A program made the position numbers and the translations under genes. The notes beneath the pieces were generated by a model. It searched no databases. It was not told the DNA's origin and saw nothing but the letters and a program-made list of their open reading frames with translations. Source: Rhizoctonia solani (taxonomy: Eukaryota > Basidiomycota > Agaricomycetes > Cantharellales > Ceratobasidiaceae). From it: 64,000 bases of DNA. Positions 45,657-54,396 of the stretch are shown here, piece after piece; the first letter of the stretch is position 1; every line of letters starts with the position of its first letter. The DNA lies in assembly GCF_016906535.1 (NCBI RefSeq), contig NC_057385.1, positions 1,116,001-1,180,000 on the forward strand, given 5' to 3'.

Positions 45657-47956
45657 ATGGCTGACCGGGAAAAAATACTTGAAGATATTCTTGGCGTCCT
45701 ACCAGATATGAGTCCTCCTTGGCTTCAATACCAGATCGCCCTACACTTGGCCATAGACCCCAACCCATCACATACTCAGATGCGCATTCTTGACTCAGCC
45801 TTTGCTTACGGCTATGTCAAAGTTGCCGAACAACCAGTACCTCCCGGTATACCCCCTATCCCACGGCTGCCTATTCCCGCGACTGCAGCTGCGGCTGTGC
45901 CCCTCCCACCAGTTCAACCACCTCAGCCGCGAGTTCGACCGCCAGCTCAACCGGTCCAAATCCCCCCTGGCGCATGCAGCACAGAAGCGAAAGGCATCCG
46001 AACCTACTATCTCTCCGAATAAGAAACAAGCACTGGACAAAACGGTAGACTTCACGCAAGTAACTAGGCCATTCGTTCAGGGAAGAGACTTCAAATATCA
46101 GGAACTATCTCTTAGTTATTTGAACGCTGAACTTGCAAACTTGCCAAACAATCAGTGAGTCCATCAAACTAATAATGCCCATACAGAGCAGCTTACCCAT
46201 CGTCCGGAACAGCATCCGCCGTCAATTCCATAGGTTCCAATATCTCGTGCCTGCATATTTAGCACTTCGACAACAGCTGGCATCTGGCGCACTGGACGGT
46301 TCGCTGCTTAAAAAGAGACGCAATGCTACTGGTCCTGTTGGGGCAGAATGCGAGCCATCTCCGCTATTCCTTGCGGAAAAGCGAGCACTAGACTCCTACA
46401 TTGGTAAGTATCCCGAATGCAAATTCTCGATTATCCCAATGTTAATTAACCCATCCCAAGCATCGGGATGTAAGAACATAAAGCTTCTGCGTGAAGCGGC
46501 CCCTCCTCAAGAAGTCGATCTTACTCGTCCTCGCACTCCAATCGCTTCCGCAAGTCGTTCGTCTAGTCGTTCGAGCTCTCCCTTTCCCGGACCAAGCCAA
46601 TCTACTGTTCCTAACTCAACCCAGTCCAGCCGCACGAGTTTAGGGAGCCCGGTTAAGAGATGGAGCCCTCCGAACCACGGGGTTAATTCGGCAAACCAGG
46701 GGCGAGAATCTAGATCCCCATCGCCGCTGGCTCGACAACACCACTCAAGATCACCCACTCCGATAGAAATCGAAACCCAAGCGACCGATGCGAGCGTAGT
46801 TGTGATCGAAAGCCAAGATAGTGATATAGTGGTCATTGAAAGTCAACGCGATGAACTAGAGGTTCCGAAATCGCCTCCACCAGCACGACCAGCAAATCTA
46901 GAATGCGGGTGCTGTTTCACCGAGTATGAATTTGTAGGTAAATTTCTCTCGCTAAAAACCTACTCTGCTGACCGCATGAAAGTCCGATATGCTGCAATGT
47001 GCAGAAGGTCACCTGTTCTGTCCACAGTGCACCAAGAAGAATGCTGAAACCGCAGTTGGGGACAACAAACCGGAGATACTGTTGGCGTACACCTTAAATT
47101 ATCCATGATAGTCTACTCACCACGCACTTTTAGGTGTATGGACCAGTCGGGATGCCGTGCGCCATTTCCAGATGAACAAATTCAACGAGTCCTGCCACCA
47201 AACACAATCGACTTGCTTCAGCGAATCCGACAGAAAAAGGCTGTTGATGATGCGAGAATTCCTGGCCTGGAACATTGTCCATTCTGTGACTATGCCTATA
47301 TCATCACGGACGGAGGCCCTACGTTTGTGTGCCAAAAACCAAGTTGCATGGTTGTTAGCTGCCGCCGATGCCGAAGAGTAGAACATGGCGGCATGACCTG
47401 CGAGCAAGTCATACAAAGGGAGAAGAGTTCGCAAGGAGAGCACGCGATAGCTGAGGCTATGAGTGCGTCCATACCTCTAGCTTGTTTCCACTCGTATTGA
47501 TTATTAATTATAGCAATGGCTCTTGTTCGGGACTGCCCGGAATGTAAAACTCCATTCATGAAGGAAACTGGTGTAAGTACAATTCGGATCCACGTGCACC
47601 ATTTGTATTAAACAATAAGCCAGTGCAACAAGATGGTCTGCCCGAAATGCGAAACAGTCTCGTGTTACATATGCCGCCAAAAAGTATCCCAGATTAGTCC
47701 ATACACACATTTCGACCGGGTACGTAGTTCAGAACACCCGCGCTAAAGGGACTCTATAACCGATACGCCTATGCAGGATCCTGATGCGTACGACCTACCG
47801 CCAGATAACAGAAAATGTCCGCTATGGGACATTGACAGAGCTGGTCGCGCTGGCGGGTCGCCCACTCGTTTGCATGCTGAAGAAGTTGCTCGAGCTGAAA
47901 GGGAAGCCAGAGCTCGATATGCTGTTCTTCCCAGGCTAAATGCGCCACGGTTCTGA
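45657..47956 (+). CDS. RBR E3 ubiquitin ligase, RNF216/TRIAD3-like
   Basis: RING-IBR-RING ligases form a thioester with ubiquitin before transfer. The N-terminal region MADREKILEDILGVLPDMSP, then SLPIVRNSIRRQFHRFQYLV and LALRQQLASG is followed by a Ser/Pro-rich linker. RING1: LECGCCFTEYEF spliced to SDMLQCAEGHLFCPQC. IBR-like part: EHCPFCDYAYIITDGGP, CQKPSC, SCRRCRRVEHGGMTCEQV. RING2: RDCPECKTPFMKETG, then CNKMVCPKCETVSCYICR, where the Cys opening the last exon segment is the expected catalytic residue; an intron lies directly before its codon. Order and spacing match RNF216 better than Parkin or HOIP. One frame change at 45850-45980 can be explained by an intron GTATAC..GCATGCAG (131 nt) or by one extra C in the C6 run at 45963-45968. 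Confidence 0.85.
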
Positions 47957-48146
47957 TCGGCATAACTATATTTTTATTTCTTATATTTCGGTATCCCATT
48001 TCGTATTCGCTCCTGTCATCGTATTTTTGGTCACCTATTGCCTGGTTTCTTTTCGTTCTTCGATTTCCGAGCTCTTGTAAACATACCATAACATATACAA
48101 TACAGTTCCTGAGAATCCTCAATTTGTGTTGTCATGCGACCTTAAA

Positions 48147-49098
48147 ATGGTACGATCGAGCATCTTATCAGATAACTAAACCTCCACCAGCCACCCGCTA
48201 TGCTGCTGTCGACACGTCCGACCCAGCCTCTTCACCAACTCGTATTCCACCCAATACAGGGTTCCAAGACGCTGGAGACTTCACTCTCATATCGTCCCCC
48301 GAAGATGTTGAATTCAAGGTCTTCCGTCTCTTTCTCATGACAGCATCTCCCGTTTTTCAGGACATCCTAACCTCGGGATCTGGTCCCCCAGTCATGAAGC
48401 TCTCCGAAGATGCTGAAACCGTTGCCGCGCTGCTCCAATACATATATCCACGTGAAAATCCTACGATCAAGAGCTATGTACTGTTTGAAAAGGTGCTGGA
48501 GGCGGCTCGAAAGTATGAGCTGGGATTTATCACTTCCGACCTTCGGGCATCTATGCGCTCAGAATCACCAGCCCTCACATGGCTCCGCACGGAACCCCTA
48601 CGAATTTACGCCCTTGCGGTACGACACGAGCTCAAAGAAGAGATCGCTATTGCTGCGAAACTCACTATCGGAAAATACGACTTTGCGTCCGCAAAAGCTG
48701 CATCAGAACTGTGTGCACTCAATATACCTTCGAGAGACGCGGTCATGCTGATGCGTATGCACATGGCGCGTGCGGGGGCTTTGTCAGACCTATTGGTCAA
48801 CGCCGAGTCTAATCCACGCTATTTTGCTGGGTTCCCGGTTAAATGCGACCAGTGCAAACACGAGGGAGGATCGGCATCGGAGCTGCAGAAAGCTTGGATG
48901 AAGGAGGCCGTTGCTCTTTTACGAAAGGAACCGTTGGATAAGGCCCACCGACTCTTTGAGCAAGAGTTCTTCTTAGGCTTGAAGCTTCGGTGTAGATGCG
49001 CAAGATGTCGTGACGCCGATCTGTACGATCGAGCTCATAAGGTTTGGGCAGAGGAATGCCGGGAAAAACTCGTGGAGTTGAAATTGGATGATCTTTGA
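48147..49098 (+). CDS. BTB/POZ domain protein with C-terminal CxxC pairs, second copy (start unresolved)
   Basis: Paralogue of the gene at 4365-5318. The BTB domain reads DFTLISSPEDVEFKVFRLFL, TASPVFQDIL, LSEDAETVAALLQYIYPREN. The C-terminal half has CDQC (about 48844) and CRCARC (about 48990), matching the two CxxC sites of the first copy, with conserved W..E and R..E spacing between. The frame from 48191 to 49098 is open, but no in-frame ATG precedes the BTB domain. The most likely start is ATG at 48147 followed by an intron (GTACGA..CACCAG, branch-like CTAAC), yet its phase is off by one, as if a base is missing. The protein function is unknown; Cullin-3 adaptor or transcriptional roles are only possibilities. 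Confidence 0.78.
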
Positions 49099-49597: not shown

Positions 49598-52597
49598 ATG
49601 TCCGCATCCGACAAGGATCTAAATAACATCAGCCCTTCGCATACGGGATCTAATGTTGCGGGAAATGCAAGTCACAGTGGTGGTCCAATAGGCAATCGTG
49701 AGTAGCAGGTTCAAGATACCTGTTATTATACCATCTATGGTCGACTTCAAACACAAGTAAACTGACAATCATCTCGTTTACTGACTCTCTATCTAGATGA
49801 TACAGGGAGTACCTACTTTGGACACTGTCAGTCACCGTCATTTTTGCTGTAGTGGTATTGTCCATTATTTTATACTCTGCCTTTTCATTTGTAGTACATT
49901 ATCCGCACCAAGTCGGTACCAACCCTGCACCAGCAAGCAAGCCTCCGTCTCAAAACCAGAATCAGAACCAGAAACCGACTTCGTCTCAGAAATCTACAGT
50001 CAATTCGCCCCCTGCCCCCATTCAAAAGCCAAAGCAAACGACTCGCCCCCCGACAAACCAACCTACTACCATCAAGCCTAGCGCGACTACAAATATACCA
50101 GCTCAACCTCCCAAGAATGCCCCGGCACCAACACCACCAGGTTCCGCGGCGGTGATGGCTGCCGTAATGGCCCAGGCCCAGGCTGCAGCGGGCCAAGCAG
50201 TTGCCGCCCAACAGGCCAGCAAGCAGCAGACCCAATCACACCAGCCACCTCCGCCTGCACCCACACCTGCAACTGTAGCCGCGCCTGCACCTGCGCCTAC
50301 TCAGCCTGCTACACAACATCCACCCCCAATGCCAGCCCCCCAACCTCCTCAGGCATATCCTTATCCTTACCCATACTACTTGCCCCCTGGACAACCGGGC
50401 GCACCTCCTTATCTGTACCCAGGTAGGCAAGGCGGGATTTGTTGGTGCCCCACGTGATACTGATGGATTTTGGCAGGAGCCCCGGGAGCTCCGGCCTTCC
50501 TCCCGGCCGGAACGCCAGGTCAGGGCGGAGCGCCGCCTCCAGGATATCCGTATATGTATCCGATGTATCCGGCCCCAATTCCTGTACCCCAAGCATCTCC
50601 AGTCCGGTATGCACTCTTTTATATCATATAACCTACCCAGTCCCGACACCATCCCAAAAGGTTGTCAAAGAAAGAAGACACAAAGAACTTACCAGGCTTG
50701 CCAAAAGTGCCGCCAGTGGAAGGCAAAGGTCAGTTACATCCGACGAAATTTATTAAGATTGTTTGACATCAGTTGTGTTAGTGTAATGGGCTGAGGCCTT
50801 GCAACCATTGCCAAAAGAGAGGAGTCGCCTGTGAATACGCTGAAAGACGCAATATGGCGGGGTAGGTGCGACCACATTCCAAAGGGTCACTATTGATTGG
50901 TCTCTAGTCCGAACGAAACAAATAATGGAGAGCCGGGCGCCTCTCAGGATGAGTCTTCTCAACCTACCCAGCCAGAGGCTAAGCCTGCGGAGGGGGCCTC
51001 AGATCCAGTGGACCCGAGTAATTTCAACAACGCACAAGCTCAACCCAGCCCTCCTGCCGCATCCAATCCACCGCCACCTCCGCCACCACCCACTTCGAAT
51101 CCCTCAACCCAACCACCACCTCAAACTTCCCCTCCAAATGCTGGCTCTCCACCCCATCCAACACAATTGGCTCAGCCTCCCCCACCAATGGCAATCTATC
51201 CTCCGCCTCCTGGATATGCGTACCCACCACAGCTCTATCCTGGGATGCCTTTTCCGGCGCCTGGGCCCGACCCCAATGCGCCATACGCCCATTTCGTGGG
51301 CATGCAATACGCTCAGCCCTATGGTCCTTACATGTGGGCGGCCCCTCCTCCACCACCCGGTCACGAACAAGCCCCCGCAGCCCATGTTGGAGAGCAGGAC
51401 GAAGGCGAGAGAGATGCAGACGGCAAACTGAAAATCAAGAGAACATTTCAAGCATGTCAAAAGTGCCGCCAGAGGAAAGCCAAGGTAGGTAGGACTTGCC
51501 TGAGTCGCGTTATATTAATCTAACCATCCTATCAGTGTAACGGGGCTCGTCCAAGTTGCCAACACTGTGCGAGTCGAGGTCTTGTTTGTGAATATGCCAA
51601 GGAAAGGAGTAAACCCCGGGGCACAAACGGAGAGGAGGGAGACGAGATTTTGGACTCTCAGAGCACTGAAGCACCTACCACTATGGACCCAACTCAAGCT
51701 ATGGTCCCTACAGCATCTTCCCCGGTCAACCCCAACCAGCAAGTAGCGCCGGGAGCTCCTCCTGTTCCAGCAACTGCTCCACCAAACATGTTCCCGCCGC
51801 CCTTTCCTTACGACCCCAATGCGTACAACCCTCATGTTGACCCCCACCAACATGGTGGCCAACCGATGTACCCCTTTCCACCATATGGATATGGCCATCC
51901 GCCCGGATTTGGAAGCATCGCCGGTCCCCCACTAGTTCACATAGGAGAAGAGGGCGCGGTTCCTCCATACCACACCGCAGTACCCCCTCCAGCAGTCATC
52001 CCTGGGCCGCCTCCTTCGAACAGCCCACCATCAGGCTCATCGAAACGACCCCGAACGATTCGCCCCCCGGGTGCGCAGGGGATGGGGAAATCACGCATTT
52101 TCCAGGCCTGTGAGCGCTGCCGAGAACGTAAAGCCAAGGTAGGTTCTGTTCGCTATTATATTTGATTCCTGTCCAGACCTTCGTACTCCTAGTGTGACGG
52201 CGTTCGCCCCATATGCACACATTGCGCCACACGCGATCTCAACTGTGAATGGGCCGATAAACGTCGCATGCGTGGGCCCGCTAAGGGCATCACCCCTAGG
52301 AGAACCCGTCAAGAGAACAACAAATATATCACTCAAGAAAACATAGATGTAAATATGAGTATGCAGGCCATGCCATTGGGGCTCAACGCAGCAGAGTTGC
52401 AGCAGATTGAACCCCACGCGTCCACTGCCTCTGAACGTAAACGCAAGCGTCGTTCAAGCCATAGCAGCGGCTCTCCCTCGCCATCCGAGTCCAGTAGCAG
52501 CTCGGATAGTTCGCCCTCTGAGAGTGATGACGACGATGCTGACAGGAACAGTACAATGGGAATAGGAGCGGGAGTCGTATCGAGTGGGTGGTCATAA
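49598..52597 (+). CDS. Protein with three Zn(II)2Cys6 clusters and Pro/Tyr-rich linkers
   Basis: Nine exons (49598-49697, 49797-49826, 49895-50422, 50477-50606, 50641-50728, 50782-50861, 50908-51484, 51536-52138, 52193-52597) sum to 2541 nt in frame, 846 aa. Three fungal binuclear clusters occur at residues about 283, 502 and 703: CQKCRQWKAKCNGLRPC..C, CQKCRQRKAKCNGARPSC..C, CERCRERKAKCDGVRPIC..C. Each has six Cys with CX2CX6CX(5-6)CX2CX6C spacing. Each follows a low-complexity linker rich in Pro, Tyr, Gly (PYPYPYYLPPGQ; YPPPPGYAYPPQLYPG; YPFPPYGYGHPPGFG). The C-terminus is Ser-rich with a basic cluster KRKRRSSHSSG and an acidic end. No fungal transcription-factor MHD follows. Probably a nuclear DNA-binding regulator. 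The 34-nt intron at 50607-50640 is short for this window. Confidence 0.88.
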
Positions 52598-53668
52598 TTT
52601 TATTTCTCGGTTGTAGGCGCTTTTACATTTTTTGTACACTTCGTTTTTATGGGATCGTATTTTTATGCTGGAATGGATATGAGAGGCGAAGCCGAGTTTC
52701 AGAATCGCATCTCCAGGGGACGCCGAGAGTCCTCAAGCAAATATTATCCAAGGCCAAAAGACTAACGCATATTAAAGTCTCAGCGTACACCTTCTCGCAA
52801 AAATGCCCTAAGCTCTGTAAGTTCATACCACTGCCATGCTCGGGGAGCTTTAACAAAATTGTAGCAAATACTAGTACTCTCGGGCTGCATTATATGCACA
52901 CTATGTAGGACTTTCTAGCCCTGTGCTAATGATGGTCAGCAAAGCCCCTTGATTTTCCCATGGACTTTGAGACCTTTCATTAGCAAGAGAGTTGCCAGTG
53001 TTTAGGTACCCGCCATCCTAAGGATTCTCCCGCACTTTGTCAATAGTAACCATGTGGGATGCTGTGGCCCGAAATCGCCGACGTTCGTTGGCACAGATAA
53101 TCATTGCTTGCTCGACTTTGATCATCCAAGGCCGAAGTTTTATTAATACAACTGGTAATATATTCTTCAACGGCGATATATCCTTGGCCTATTGTCCCCG
53201 TGGCCATGAATACGATATCTCTTTCCTACAAGTCGATGTACGGTAGTTTGGTCTCGAGCCCGTCTTCAGATAATTTTGTCATATATTTGTATGAGCTAGC
53301 CTTCAGACTACTTGAGTATATCGTCATATAGTCCAAATATACCAGCTACTTTCTTGGGCCATATGGAACACTGGGACCGCTTCACACGGAAATGATGACG
53401 GGTAATTATCCTATAATAAGCGAGCCTTAGCCGCTAATCTTTGGCATCGCATATACCCATCGAACTTACTCTAAGACACAAGTTGCAACATGTGCGACGG
53501 TCTTGCGCCTTTTCTTCTATTTTCTTCTACAGATGGAACCCAGTGGTGATGTAGCGACCGGTAAGAGCGGAGGCTGTCTTGAGGTATAAATAATGAACAT
53601 AATTGTTTGTCTAAACACCATCTTTCGAACATATTATCTCCTGAAGCCATAAGTTCAGCTTCTCAAAT
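52598..53668. other. Intergenic region, 1.1 kb
   Basis: It separates the zinc-cluster gene from the secreted protein gene. AT-rich patches, no coding pattern. A TATAAATA lies at the right end, annotated separately. Confidence 0.5.
53585..53592 (+). promoter_or_regulatory. TATA box of RlpA-like gene 1
   Basis: TATAAATA lies 77 nt before the start codon in an otherwise non-TATA window; the position suits a core promoter with a short leader. Confidence 0.5.
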
Positions 53669-54396
53669 ATGCTATTTGCCACCCATCTTTTGACTGCTTT
53701 CGTCGTTGCTGTTGGGTTTTTTGGAAGTGCTGCGACAGCTCCAGTCCAAAACACTACTACACACGGACTTGTCGCCCGTGGTCCTTACGACACCCATAAT
53801 GGATGGGTAAGTAATATTATAGCCAATATTGTGCGCTGTAAGGGTCAAACTAATCTTTAATAGGCATCGTGGTGTATGCATACATTCGACATGTTTATAC
53901 TGAAATTCCGTTACTAACAACTTAAACAGACAACCCCTCCGCAGGGATCGGTGCATGCGGTTGGCAAAACGTACGTTTTTTCTTTTCCGTAACTTACACA
54001 GTTAAGATGGAACTGTTTACAGCAAGATTATGAATGGGTGGCTGCTGTAGGGACCCAGCTGTTCCAAGAACTAATCCCAGGTACTATTCTAGCTTTACTA
54101 TTTTACTTCTTTCTTGAACTGATTGTTTGCAATAGATGGAAACCCCAACCACAGTGCCGCTTGTGGAAAGACTGCCACTGCTACCTGGAATGGAAAGAGT
54201 ATTACTCTTGGGATCGTTGATCGTTGCCCTGGGTGTGGCTATAACGATATCGACCTTGCACCCGCTGCGTTCCAGCAGTTTGCCGATCTTGGTTAGTTTC
54301 AGAATTGTTACTTATTTTACCCGATGCCACCGAAGCTTACCATCATATGATCTAGGTGTTGGAAAACTGAACGGATTTTCTTGGAGATTCAATTAG
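53669..54396 (+). CDS. Secreted RlpA-like double-psi beta-barrel protein, copy 1
   Basis: Small secreted protein of the expansin/barwin-related DPBB fold (RlpA-like). Such proteins in plant-pathogenic fungi include effector-type secreted proteins; enzymatic activity is not implied. Six exons (53669-53806, 53864-53873, 53930-53970, 54023-54080, 54136-54291, 54356-54396) sum to 444 nt, 147 aa. Signal peptide MLFATHLLTAFVVAVGFFGS, then a short pro-region ending LVARGPYDTHNGW, possibly cleaved after the Arg. The domain has ASWYNPSAGIGACGWQN, WVAAVGTQLFQE, CGKTATATWNGKSI, VDRCPGCGYNDIDLAPAAF, KLNGFSWRF. The second exon is only 10 nt and gives Ala-Ser-Trp plus the first base of Tyr. The same 10-nt exon exists in copy 2. 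Convergent with CDC123 at 120 nt. Confidence 0.88.
53864..53873 (+). other. 10-nt microexon of RlpA-like gene 1
   Basis: GCATCGTGGT flanked by TAATAG and GTATGC; needed to join HNGW to YNPSAGIG in frame. Its counterpart at 56763-56772 is GCTTCGTGGT. Confidence 0.8.

What the first reader, a model, noticed from the sequence alone, without database searches (positions are those of the whole stretch)
49598..52597. One protein with three complete Zn(II)2Cys6 clusters
Direct reading of the joined exons (846 aa, total exon length divisible by three) shows three six-cysteine clusters about 200 residues apart, each after a Pro/Tyr-rich linker. Fungal Zn(II)2Cys6 proteins normally carry one cluster, near the N-terminus and often followed by a middle homology region, which is absent here. 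Three clusters on one chain could bind DNA sites of unusual length or arrangement, or bring distant sites together. This is the best candidate for an undescribed system in the window; the function is inference.
Basis: partly seen in the sequence, partly recalled or inferred. Interest (0 to 1): 0.85.

Follow-up and report, generated by a model that had tools for sequence, protein, structure and literature searches.

The report
Fungal regulator with three DNA-binding clusters
A gene of the crop-infecting fungus Rhizoctonia encodes a probably DNA-binding, mostly unstructured protein with three zinc-cluster domains instead of the usual one; relatives share the layout, so it is real and unusual, but it is a variation on a well-known family and not a new kind of system.

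Summary
The three Zn(II)2Cys6 clusters are real: the joined model has three PF00172 matches and no other Pfam family. Exon 8 alone holds the second half of cluster 2 and the first half of cluster 3 in one frame, so these two are not separate genes. The layout is conserved: 12 close relatives, all Ceratobasidiaceae, were found; 9 of 12 show all three clusters on one predicted chain, the other 3 look like truncated or misread models. Conservation alternates: a Pro/Tyr block before each cluster, variable spacers between. The nearest wider kin, among them a paralogue in this genome with the same intron position, carry one cluster.

It creates 15 residues before cluster 1 unlike those of relatives, and the window's letters do not give the conserved frame there.

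A second three-cluster gene lies elsewhere in this genome, so triple clusters are not unique. Most likely function: a multivalent DNA-binding regulator (inferred). New variant of a known kind.

The parts
50423..50476 (+). intron 3 (54 nt), inside the first Pro/Tyr block
50696..50728 (+). cluster 1, first half
50729..50781 (+). intron splitting cluster 1 after KAK, phase 0
50782..50861 (+). cluster 1, second half and tail (exon 6)
50908..51484 (+). exon 7: spacer, second Pro/Tyr block, first half of cluster 2
51485..51535 (+). intron splitting cluster 2 after KAK, phase 0
51536..52138 (+). exon 8: second half of cluster 2, third Pro/Tyr block, first half of cluster 3, one open frame
52139..52192 (+). 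intron splitting cluster 3 after KAK, phase 0
52193..52597 (+). exon 9: second half of cluster 3, basic stretch RKRKRR (nuclear-signal candidate, by eye) and Ser/Asp tail

Best explanation
It is a regulator of the Zn(II)2Cys6 kind in which a cluster of a single-cluster type was copied to three on one largely disordered chain. Each cluster probably binds a short CGG-like DNA triplet (recalled from Gal4-type factors). The chain, with about 170-195 residues of linker between clusters, ties three weak contacts into one multivalent contact with promoters that hold several such triplets at loose spacing, without the coiled-coil dimer that Gal4-type factors use. The conserved Pro/Tyr blocks, the Ala/Gln-rich N-terminal block and the Ser/Asp tail probably recruit partners. 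Shown: three clusters on one predicted chain, their conservation, the alternating layout, likeness to a single-cluster family, no Pfam middle homology region. Inferred: DNA binding, multivalency, partner recruitment, nuclear location, copying from one cluster.
For: Three Zn_clus stretches. All three clusters of the window, and every complete cluster in the 12 relatives, keep arginine at position 5 and lysine at position 8 of the motif, positions reported as conserved in five of the seven major cluster types of P. ostreatus (PMC7295025, passages). Cluster 2 matches the solved DNA-binding domains of HAP1/CYP1, LAC9, PUT3 and GAL4 (E 4e-5 to 5e-4). Across 10 aligned members the three cluster cores have mean identity 0.92, 0.90 and 0.92 to the window, with 23 of 27, 21 of 28 and 21 of 28 positions identical in all; the Pro/Tyr blocks have 0.90-0.93; the spacers between them 0.21-0.64. 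In a tree of 43 cluster rows, clusters 1, 2 and 3 each form their own clade over the ten members (97/97, 97/85, 100/99), so the three were present before these lineages split. The predicted model of relative P0002 has short helices at the clusters, one helix at 108-128 and no long helix after a cluster.
Against: No DNA-binding, expression or localisation data. Cluster 1 has tryptophan at motif position 7 in the window and in all 11 relatives that show cluster 1, where every complete cluster 2, cluster 3 and single cluster examined has arginine, and its loop is one residue shorter, so it may have left ordinary DNA binding. The structure model has mean pLDDT 42.8 and proves little. The conserved Pro/Tyr blocks show that the linkers are more than spacers, which the bare multivalency picture does not need. 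Whether the three clusters descend from one cluster within this gene is not resolved (support 69/74).
Confidence: 0.55

Rival explanations
1. Division of labour: one or two clusters (most likely 2 and 3) bind DNA, while cluster 1 serves another purpose, such as protein contact or self-association.
For: Cluster 1 alone has the tryptophan at position 7 (12 of 12 proteins that show it) and a shorter loop, and it is the least like the single-cluster kin: mean identity to the Ceratobasidiaceae single clusters 0.61, 0.69, 0.65 for clusters 1, 2, 3. The second three-cluster gene has a third cluster without the basic residues at positions 5 and 8, so clusters in such chains can lose binding residues.
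Against: Cluster 1 keeps all six cysteines, R5 and K8 and is as conserved as the others. One Tulasnella single-cluster protein also has the short loop (P0013).
Confidence: 0.3
2. Architectural or general chromatin factor: the chain bridges DNA sites or gathers promoters in condensates through its Pro/Tyr-rich parts, without a specific target gene set.
For: Low-confidence model over most of the chain (674 of 818 residues under pLDDT 50), conserved Pro/Tyr blocks before each cluster, no middle region found.
Against: No test here bears on bridging; low model confidence from 11 sequences is not proof of disorder or of phase separation.
Confidence: 0.1
3. Gene-model artefact: two or three neighbouring genes read as one.
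For: Public models of this locus disagree: one fuses a BTB gene (P0003), one adds a downstream gene and misreads cluster 1 (P0001). The conserved frame near intron 4 is not given by the window.
Against: Exon 8 ties clusters 2 and 3 physically. Nine of 12 relatives carry all three on one predicted chain, with conserved blocks on both sides of the introns.
Confidence: 0.04

Closest known systems
Single-cluster Zn(II)2Cys6 family of Cantharellales and other Agaricomycetes (P0013-P0015, P0017-P0035; own-genome paralogue L016)
   Same: Cluster and near flanks alike. Intron at the same place, after KAK, phase 0, read in the paralogue L016 and suggested by inserted residues in P0031 and P0032. No other Pfam domain in the three members scanned (P0015, P0018, P0030).
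   Different: One cluster, not three: of the 21 listed besides P0006, 16 have exactly one complete motif and 5 have one broken or misread motif; none has two. Comparing P0002 with P0018, each of the three clusters matches the single one; the match at cluster 1 runs on into weakly similar flanks, and no separate match outside clusters is significant. P0025 also carries a precomputed PF00155, perhaps a fused model.
Gal4-type Zn(II)2Cys6 activators (GAL4, LAC9, HAP1, PUT3)
   Same: Cysteine spacing; sequence match of cluster 2
   Different: One cluster near the N-terminus followed by a coiled coil and often a middle homology region (recalled); here three clusters and no PF04082
Two-cluster proteins in print: PoZCP55 of Pleurotus ostreatus (PMC7295025, passages) and an Alternaria factor (PMC10305253, one passage)
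   Same: More than one zinc cluster on one protein
   Different: Two clusters, not three; PoZCP55 also has three septin domains and its clusters at the C-terminus; the Alternaria factor is said to have one transmembrane domain
Second three-cluster gene of the same genome, L019 (C13, about 1832978-1830640, minus)
   Same: Three Zn_clus stretches on one chain, 71.4 bits; each cluster split by an intron
   Different: Introns split each cluster just after its second cysteine and the next residue; clusters 61 and 90 residues apart; third cluster lacks R5 and K8. Its conservation in other species was not tested.

Membership tests
Zn(II)2Cys6 (PF00172) proteins | six-cysteine motif CX2CX6CX5-12CX2CX6-8C and Pfam score above the cut-off | tested here: met
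   88.2 bits against 21, three stretches; motif at residues 283, 502, 703
Zn(II)2Cys6 (PF00172) proteins | binds two zinc ions per cluster and contacts DNA | not testable with these tools
   sequence only; similarity to solved DNA-binding domains
CeGAL / Gal4-type with middle homology domain | Zn2C6 domain paired with the fungal_trans middle homology domain (PF04082) | tested here: not met
   no Pfam family but Zn_clus up to E 1; the pairing from PMC10141177 (passages)
Gal4-type dimeric factors | coiled-coil dimerisation helix after the cluster (recalled) | tested here: inconclusive
   no long helix after any cluster in the model of P0002, but mean pLDDT 42.8
single-cluster Cantharellales family (P0018 type) | exactly one cluster | tested here: not met
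   three clusters
single-cluster Cantharellales family (P0018 type) | intron after KAK, phase 0, splitting the cluster | tested here: met
   all three clusters of the window gene and paralogue L016; not read at DNA level in other species
single-cluster Cantharellales family (P0018 type) | common descent of the cluster | tested here: inconclusive
   clusters 0.61-0.69 identical to the Ceratobasidiaceae single clusters; whether the three form one clade apart from the singles is unresolved (69/74)

The most novel reading that the evidence does not exclude
A module of one conserved Pro/Tyr block plus one zinc cluster, repeated three times on one chain, works as a single-molecule three-headed DNA reader: the heads have diverged (cluster 1 with its constant tryptophan and short loop) to read different half-sites, so that one monomer recognises a composite promoter code that other zinc-cluster factors read only as dimers, and each Pro/Tyr block docks a partner beside each head. 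It would be an invention of the Ceratobasidiaceae, made by copying exons whose introns cut the cluster at one and the same codon boundary.
Probability: 0.25. Interest if true: 0.6.

Novelty: new variant of a known kind. Interest (0 to 1): 0.4.

Why it matters
Zn(II)2Cys6 factors are one of the largest classes of fungal regulators and are mostly understood as one-cluster proteins, many of which dimerise (recalled). A conserved three-cluster chain lets one ask whether several heads on one flexible chain can replace dimerisation, and how extra DNA-binding heads arise by copying of exons. It also shows how automatic annotation can lose intron-split clusters: the public AG-1 IA model P0001 shows two of the three.

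Tried and rejected
Three separate genes: rejected for clusters 2 and 3 by exon 8, and made unlikely for cluster 1 by nine of 12 relatives. Chance cysteines: the bare DNA pattern for a CX2CX6C half-motif is common by chance (8 found in the window, three of them in these clusters; 4.77 expected; 16 of 100 shuffles reach 8), but the Pfam match is not. Whole-unit triplication including the linker: profile comparison found the three clusters alike (E 1.7e-17 to 1.4e-22) but the three Pro/Tyr blocks not demonstrably so (probabilities 0.3-2.6%), so only the clusters are shown to be alike. Intron-guided copying: the same phase-0 position in all three clusters is seen, the mechanism is not shown. Docking motif: PPG followed by Y or F occurs once in each Pro/Tyr block of the window, P0002, P0007 and P0010; P0004 lacks the third; only these 5 of the 10 aligned proteins were examined, and in such Pro-rich sequence this may be chance. 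No fold search was run because the model was too poor. Rfam found nothing above its thresholds in the window. Searches with one cluster as query scored few candidates (18 and 32), and only the 7974 candidates sharing most words were scored, so three-cluster relatives outside Ceratobasidiaceae could have been missed. PF00172 in the own genome gave 104 matches (150 of 167 candidates scored), none at the window's gene, so intron-split clusters are missed there and clusters per gene could not be counted genome-wide; of the neighbouring matches I worked out only the closest pair (C13); L018 (C14) was fetched and not analysed.

Full report
What is there. The window lies in a 40.7-Mb, 16-contig genome. 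The closest public proteins are from Rhizoctonia solani and Ceratobasidium. Over the 526 residues from exon 7 to near the end, the window protein and the AG-1 IA record P0001 differ at one residue, so the genome is most likely R. solani AG-1 IA or very close (Basidiomycota, Cantharellales, Ceratobasidiaceae). Joining nine exons between 49598 and 52597 gives 846 residues with three Zn(II)2Cys6 motifs. Pfam finds PF00172 in three stretches and no other family. Proline is 19.8% and alanine 11.5% of residues.

One chain or several. Each cluster is cut by an intron directly before its third cysteine, always after KAK and in phase 0 (50729-50781, 51485-51535, 52139-52192). Exon 8 therefore holds the end of cluster 2, the linker, and the start of cluster 3 in one uninterrupted frame, and exon 7 holds the spacer after cluster 1 and the start of cluster 2. 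Separate genes for clusters 2 and 3 would have to share exon 8. A search with residues 255-846 found 16 proteins, 12 of them from Rhizoctonia or Ceratobasidium, both Ceratobasidiaceae, at 58-93% identity. Nine of these 12 (P0002-P0010) carry three clusters; in P0006 the second shows only if one extra residue at the splice junction is allowed. P0001 has two complete motifs (cluster 1 misread), P0012 two, P0011 one complete and the first halves of the other two. The other four (two Tulasnella, Cyclocybe aegerita, Coemansia umbellata) have one cluster each. These are predictions, not transcripts.

The doubtful junction. In 10 of 12 relatives the residues before cluster 1 include a conserved KEKK[ST]Q stretch. 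An 11th (P0011) has the same stretch after an insert that looks like the retained intron, beginning with the two residues that the window's donor letters would encode. The 12th, P0001, is misread there. The window's letters do not give the conserved frame on either side of this intron; by eye, the misread frames of P0001 imply slightly different letters there than the window has. This points to an assembly error or a strain difference; I could not see reads.

Anatomy. With the window and nine relatives aligned (A1), mean identity to the window alternates: 1-42 0.48; 43-101 0.54; Ala/Gln-rich block 102-154 0.87; 155-197 0.36; Pro/Tyr block 1 198-262 0.91; 263-277 0.21; cluster 1 region 278-318 0.92; 319-408 0.51; Pro/Tyr block 2 409-473 0.90; 474-483 0.54; cluster 2 region 484-540 0.94; 541-592 0.63; Pro/Tyr block 3 593-651 0.93; 652-679 0.64; cluster 3 region 680-751 0.89; 752-792 0.51; Ser/Asp tail 793-846 0.78. 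I set the borders after seeing the invariant columns, so the contrast is descriptive. Parts of the linkers are thus as conserved as the clusters. An AlphaFold2 model of relative P0002 from 11 sequences has mean pLDDT 42.8, with 674 of 818 residues under 50; short helices at the clusters and a helix at 108-128 in the Ala/Gln block are the main elements.

Origin. In a tree of 43 cluster rows, clusters 1, 2 and 3 each form one clade across ten members (97/97, 97/85, 100/99), so all three were present in their common ancestor (few columns, many forks open). In the own genome, the only match to the protein outside its own locus is L016 on contig 1: a gene with one cluster, cut by an intron at the same codon boundary. 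A search with the Tulasnella member P0014 gave 22 proteins: P0006 of the three-cluster family and 21 others from Rhizoctonia, Ceratobasidium, Tulasnella, Botryobasidium (Cantharellales) and one unnamed source (P0019). Of the 21, 16 have one complete cluster, 5 one broken or misread cluster, and none more than one. Mean identities over the cluster core are 0.62 (1-2), 0.50 (1-3), 0.57 (2-3), and to Ceratobasidiaceae single clusters 0.61, 0.69, 0.65. So copies 2 and 3 are closer to the single-cluster type than to their sisters and copy 1 is about equally close to copy 2 and to it. Whether the three form one clade (69/74) and whether cluster 2 could group with the singles (p 0.337) is not settled. 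At DNA level a 47-nt stretch at the start of the clusters is the longest repeat listed (81% and 62% to copy 1).

How it probably works. All clusters keep the six cysteines, arginine at position 5 and lysine at position 8, and cluster 2 matches solved DNA-binding domains of HAP1/CYP1, LAC9, PUT3 and GAL4. The rest of this paragraph is inference. Gal4-type clusters read CGG-like triplets and usually pair through a coiled coil (recalled). Here no coiled coil or middle region is seen, and three heads sit on one probably flexible chain, so multivalent monomeric binding to several triplets is the simplest reading. Cluster 1 has tryptophan at position 7 in 12 of 12 proteins that show it, against arginine in every other complete cluster of these families examined, which suggests a different site or a different task. 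Pro/Tyr blocks, Ala/Gln block and acidic tail are likely contact surfaces.

Novelty. Three clusters are not unique: on contig 13 of the same genome (about 1832978-1830640, minus) a second gene joins to 720 residues with three Zn_clus stretches (71.4 bits), intron-split at another position, the third cluster without R5 and K8. Two-cluster proteins are in print: one of 66 zinc-cluster proteins of P. ostreatus, with septin domains (PMC7295025, passages), and one mentioned for Alternaria (PMC10305253, one passage). The passages seen of PMC5415576, PMC3998117 and PMC10141177 deal with mixed-type factors, counts or the middle homology domain and say nothing of three zinc clusters in one chain; the whole texts were not read. 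Nine answered paper searches listed no paper that, by title and start of abstract, describes this family. The library holds open-licence papers only, and four listings were cut (10 of 92; 15 of 16; 25 of 70; 25 of 123). Verdict: real, conserved, seen only in Ceratobasidiaceae so far, a new variant of a known kind.

Noticed in passing
L019 (G000:C13 about 1832978-1830640, minus strand): A second three-cluster Zn(II)2Cys6 gene: motifs start at residues 33, 121 and 239 of a 720-residue joined model, each split by an intron just after CxxC plus one residue; third cluster lacks the usual basic residues; Arg/Asp-rich stretch in the tail.
   Followed up: partly
L016 (G000:C1:2917767-2917892, plus strand): Single-cluster paralogue with the same intron position after KAK; it and most of its Cantharellales kin share the lead SPTPTKRQRT before the cluster.
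   Followed up: partly
window 47899-49098 (+): BTB-domain gene directly upstream on the same strand (PF00651, 31.5 bits); the R. solani protein P0003 joins a BTB domain to the three-cluster protein.
   Followed up: partly
window about 53645-54220 (+): Open frames of a probably secreted protein, which the AG-1 IA model P0001 appends to the three-cluster gene; its end has a weak DPBB_1 match below the cut-off.
   Followed up: no
G000:C11 about 1551000-1956807 and G000:C13 about 143313-540126: Seven pairs of Zn_clus matches on contigs 11 and 13 have equal or nearly equal scores and lie in mirrored order (coordinate sums within about 10 kb), as if a segment of roughly 400 kb were duplicated in inverted order.
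   Followed up: partly
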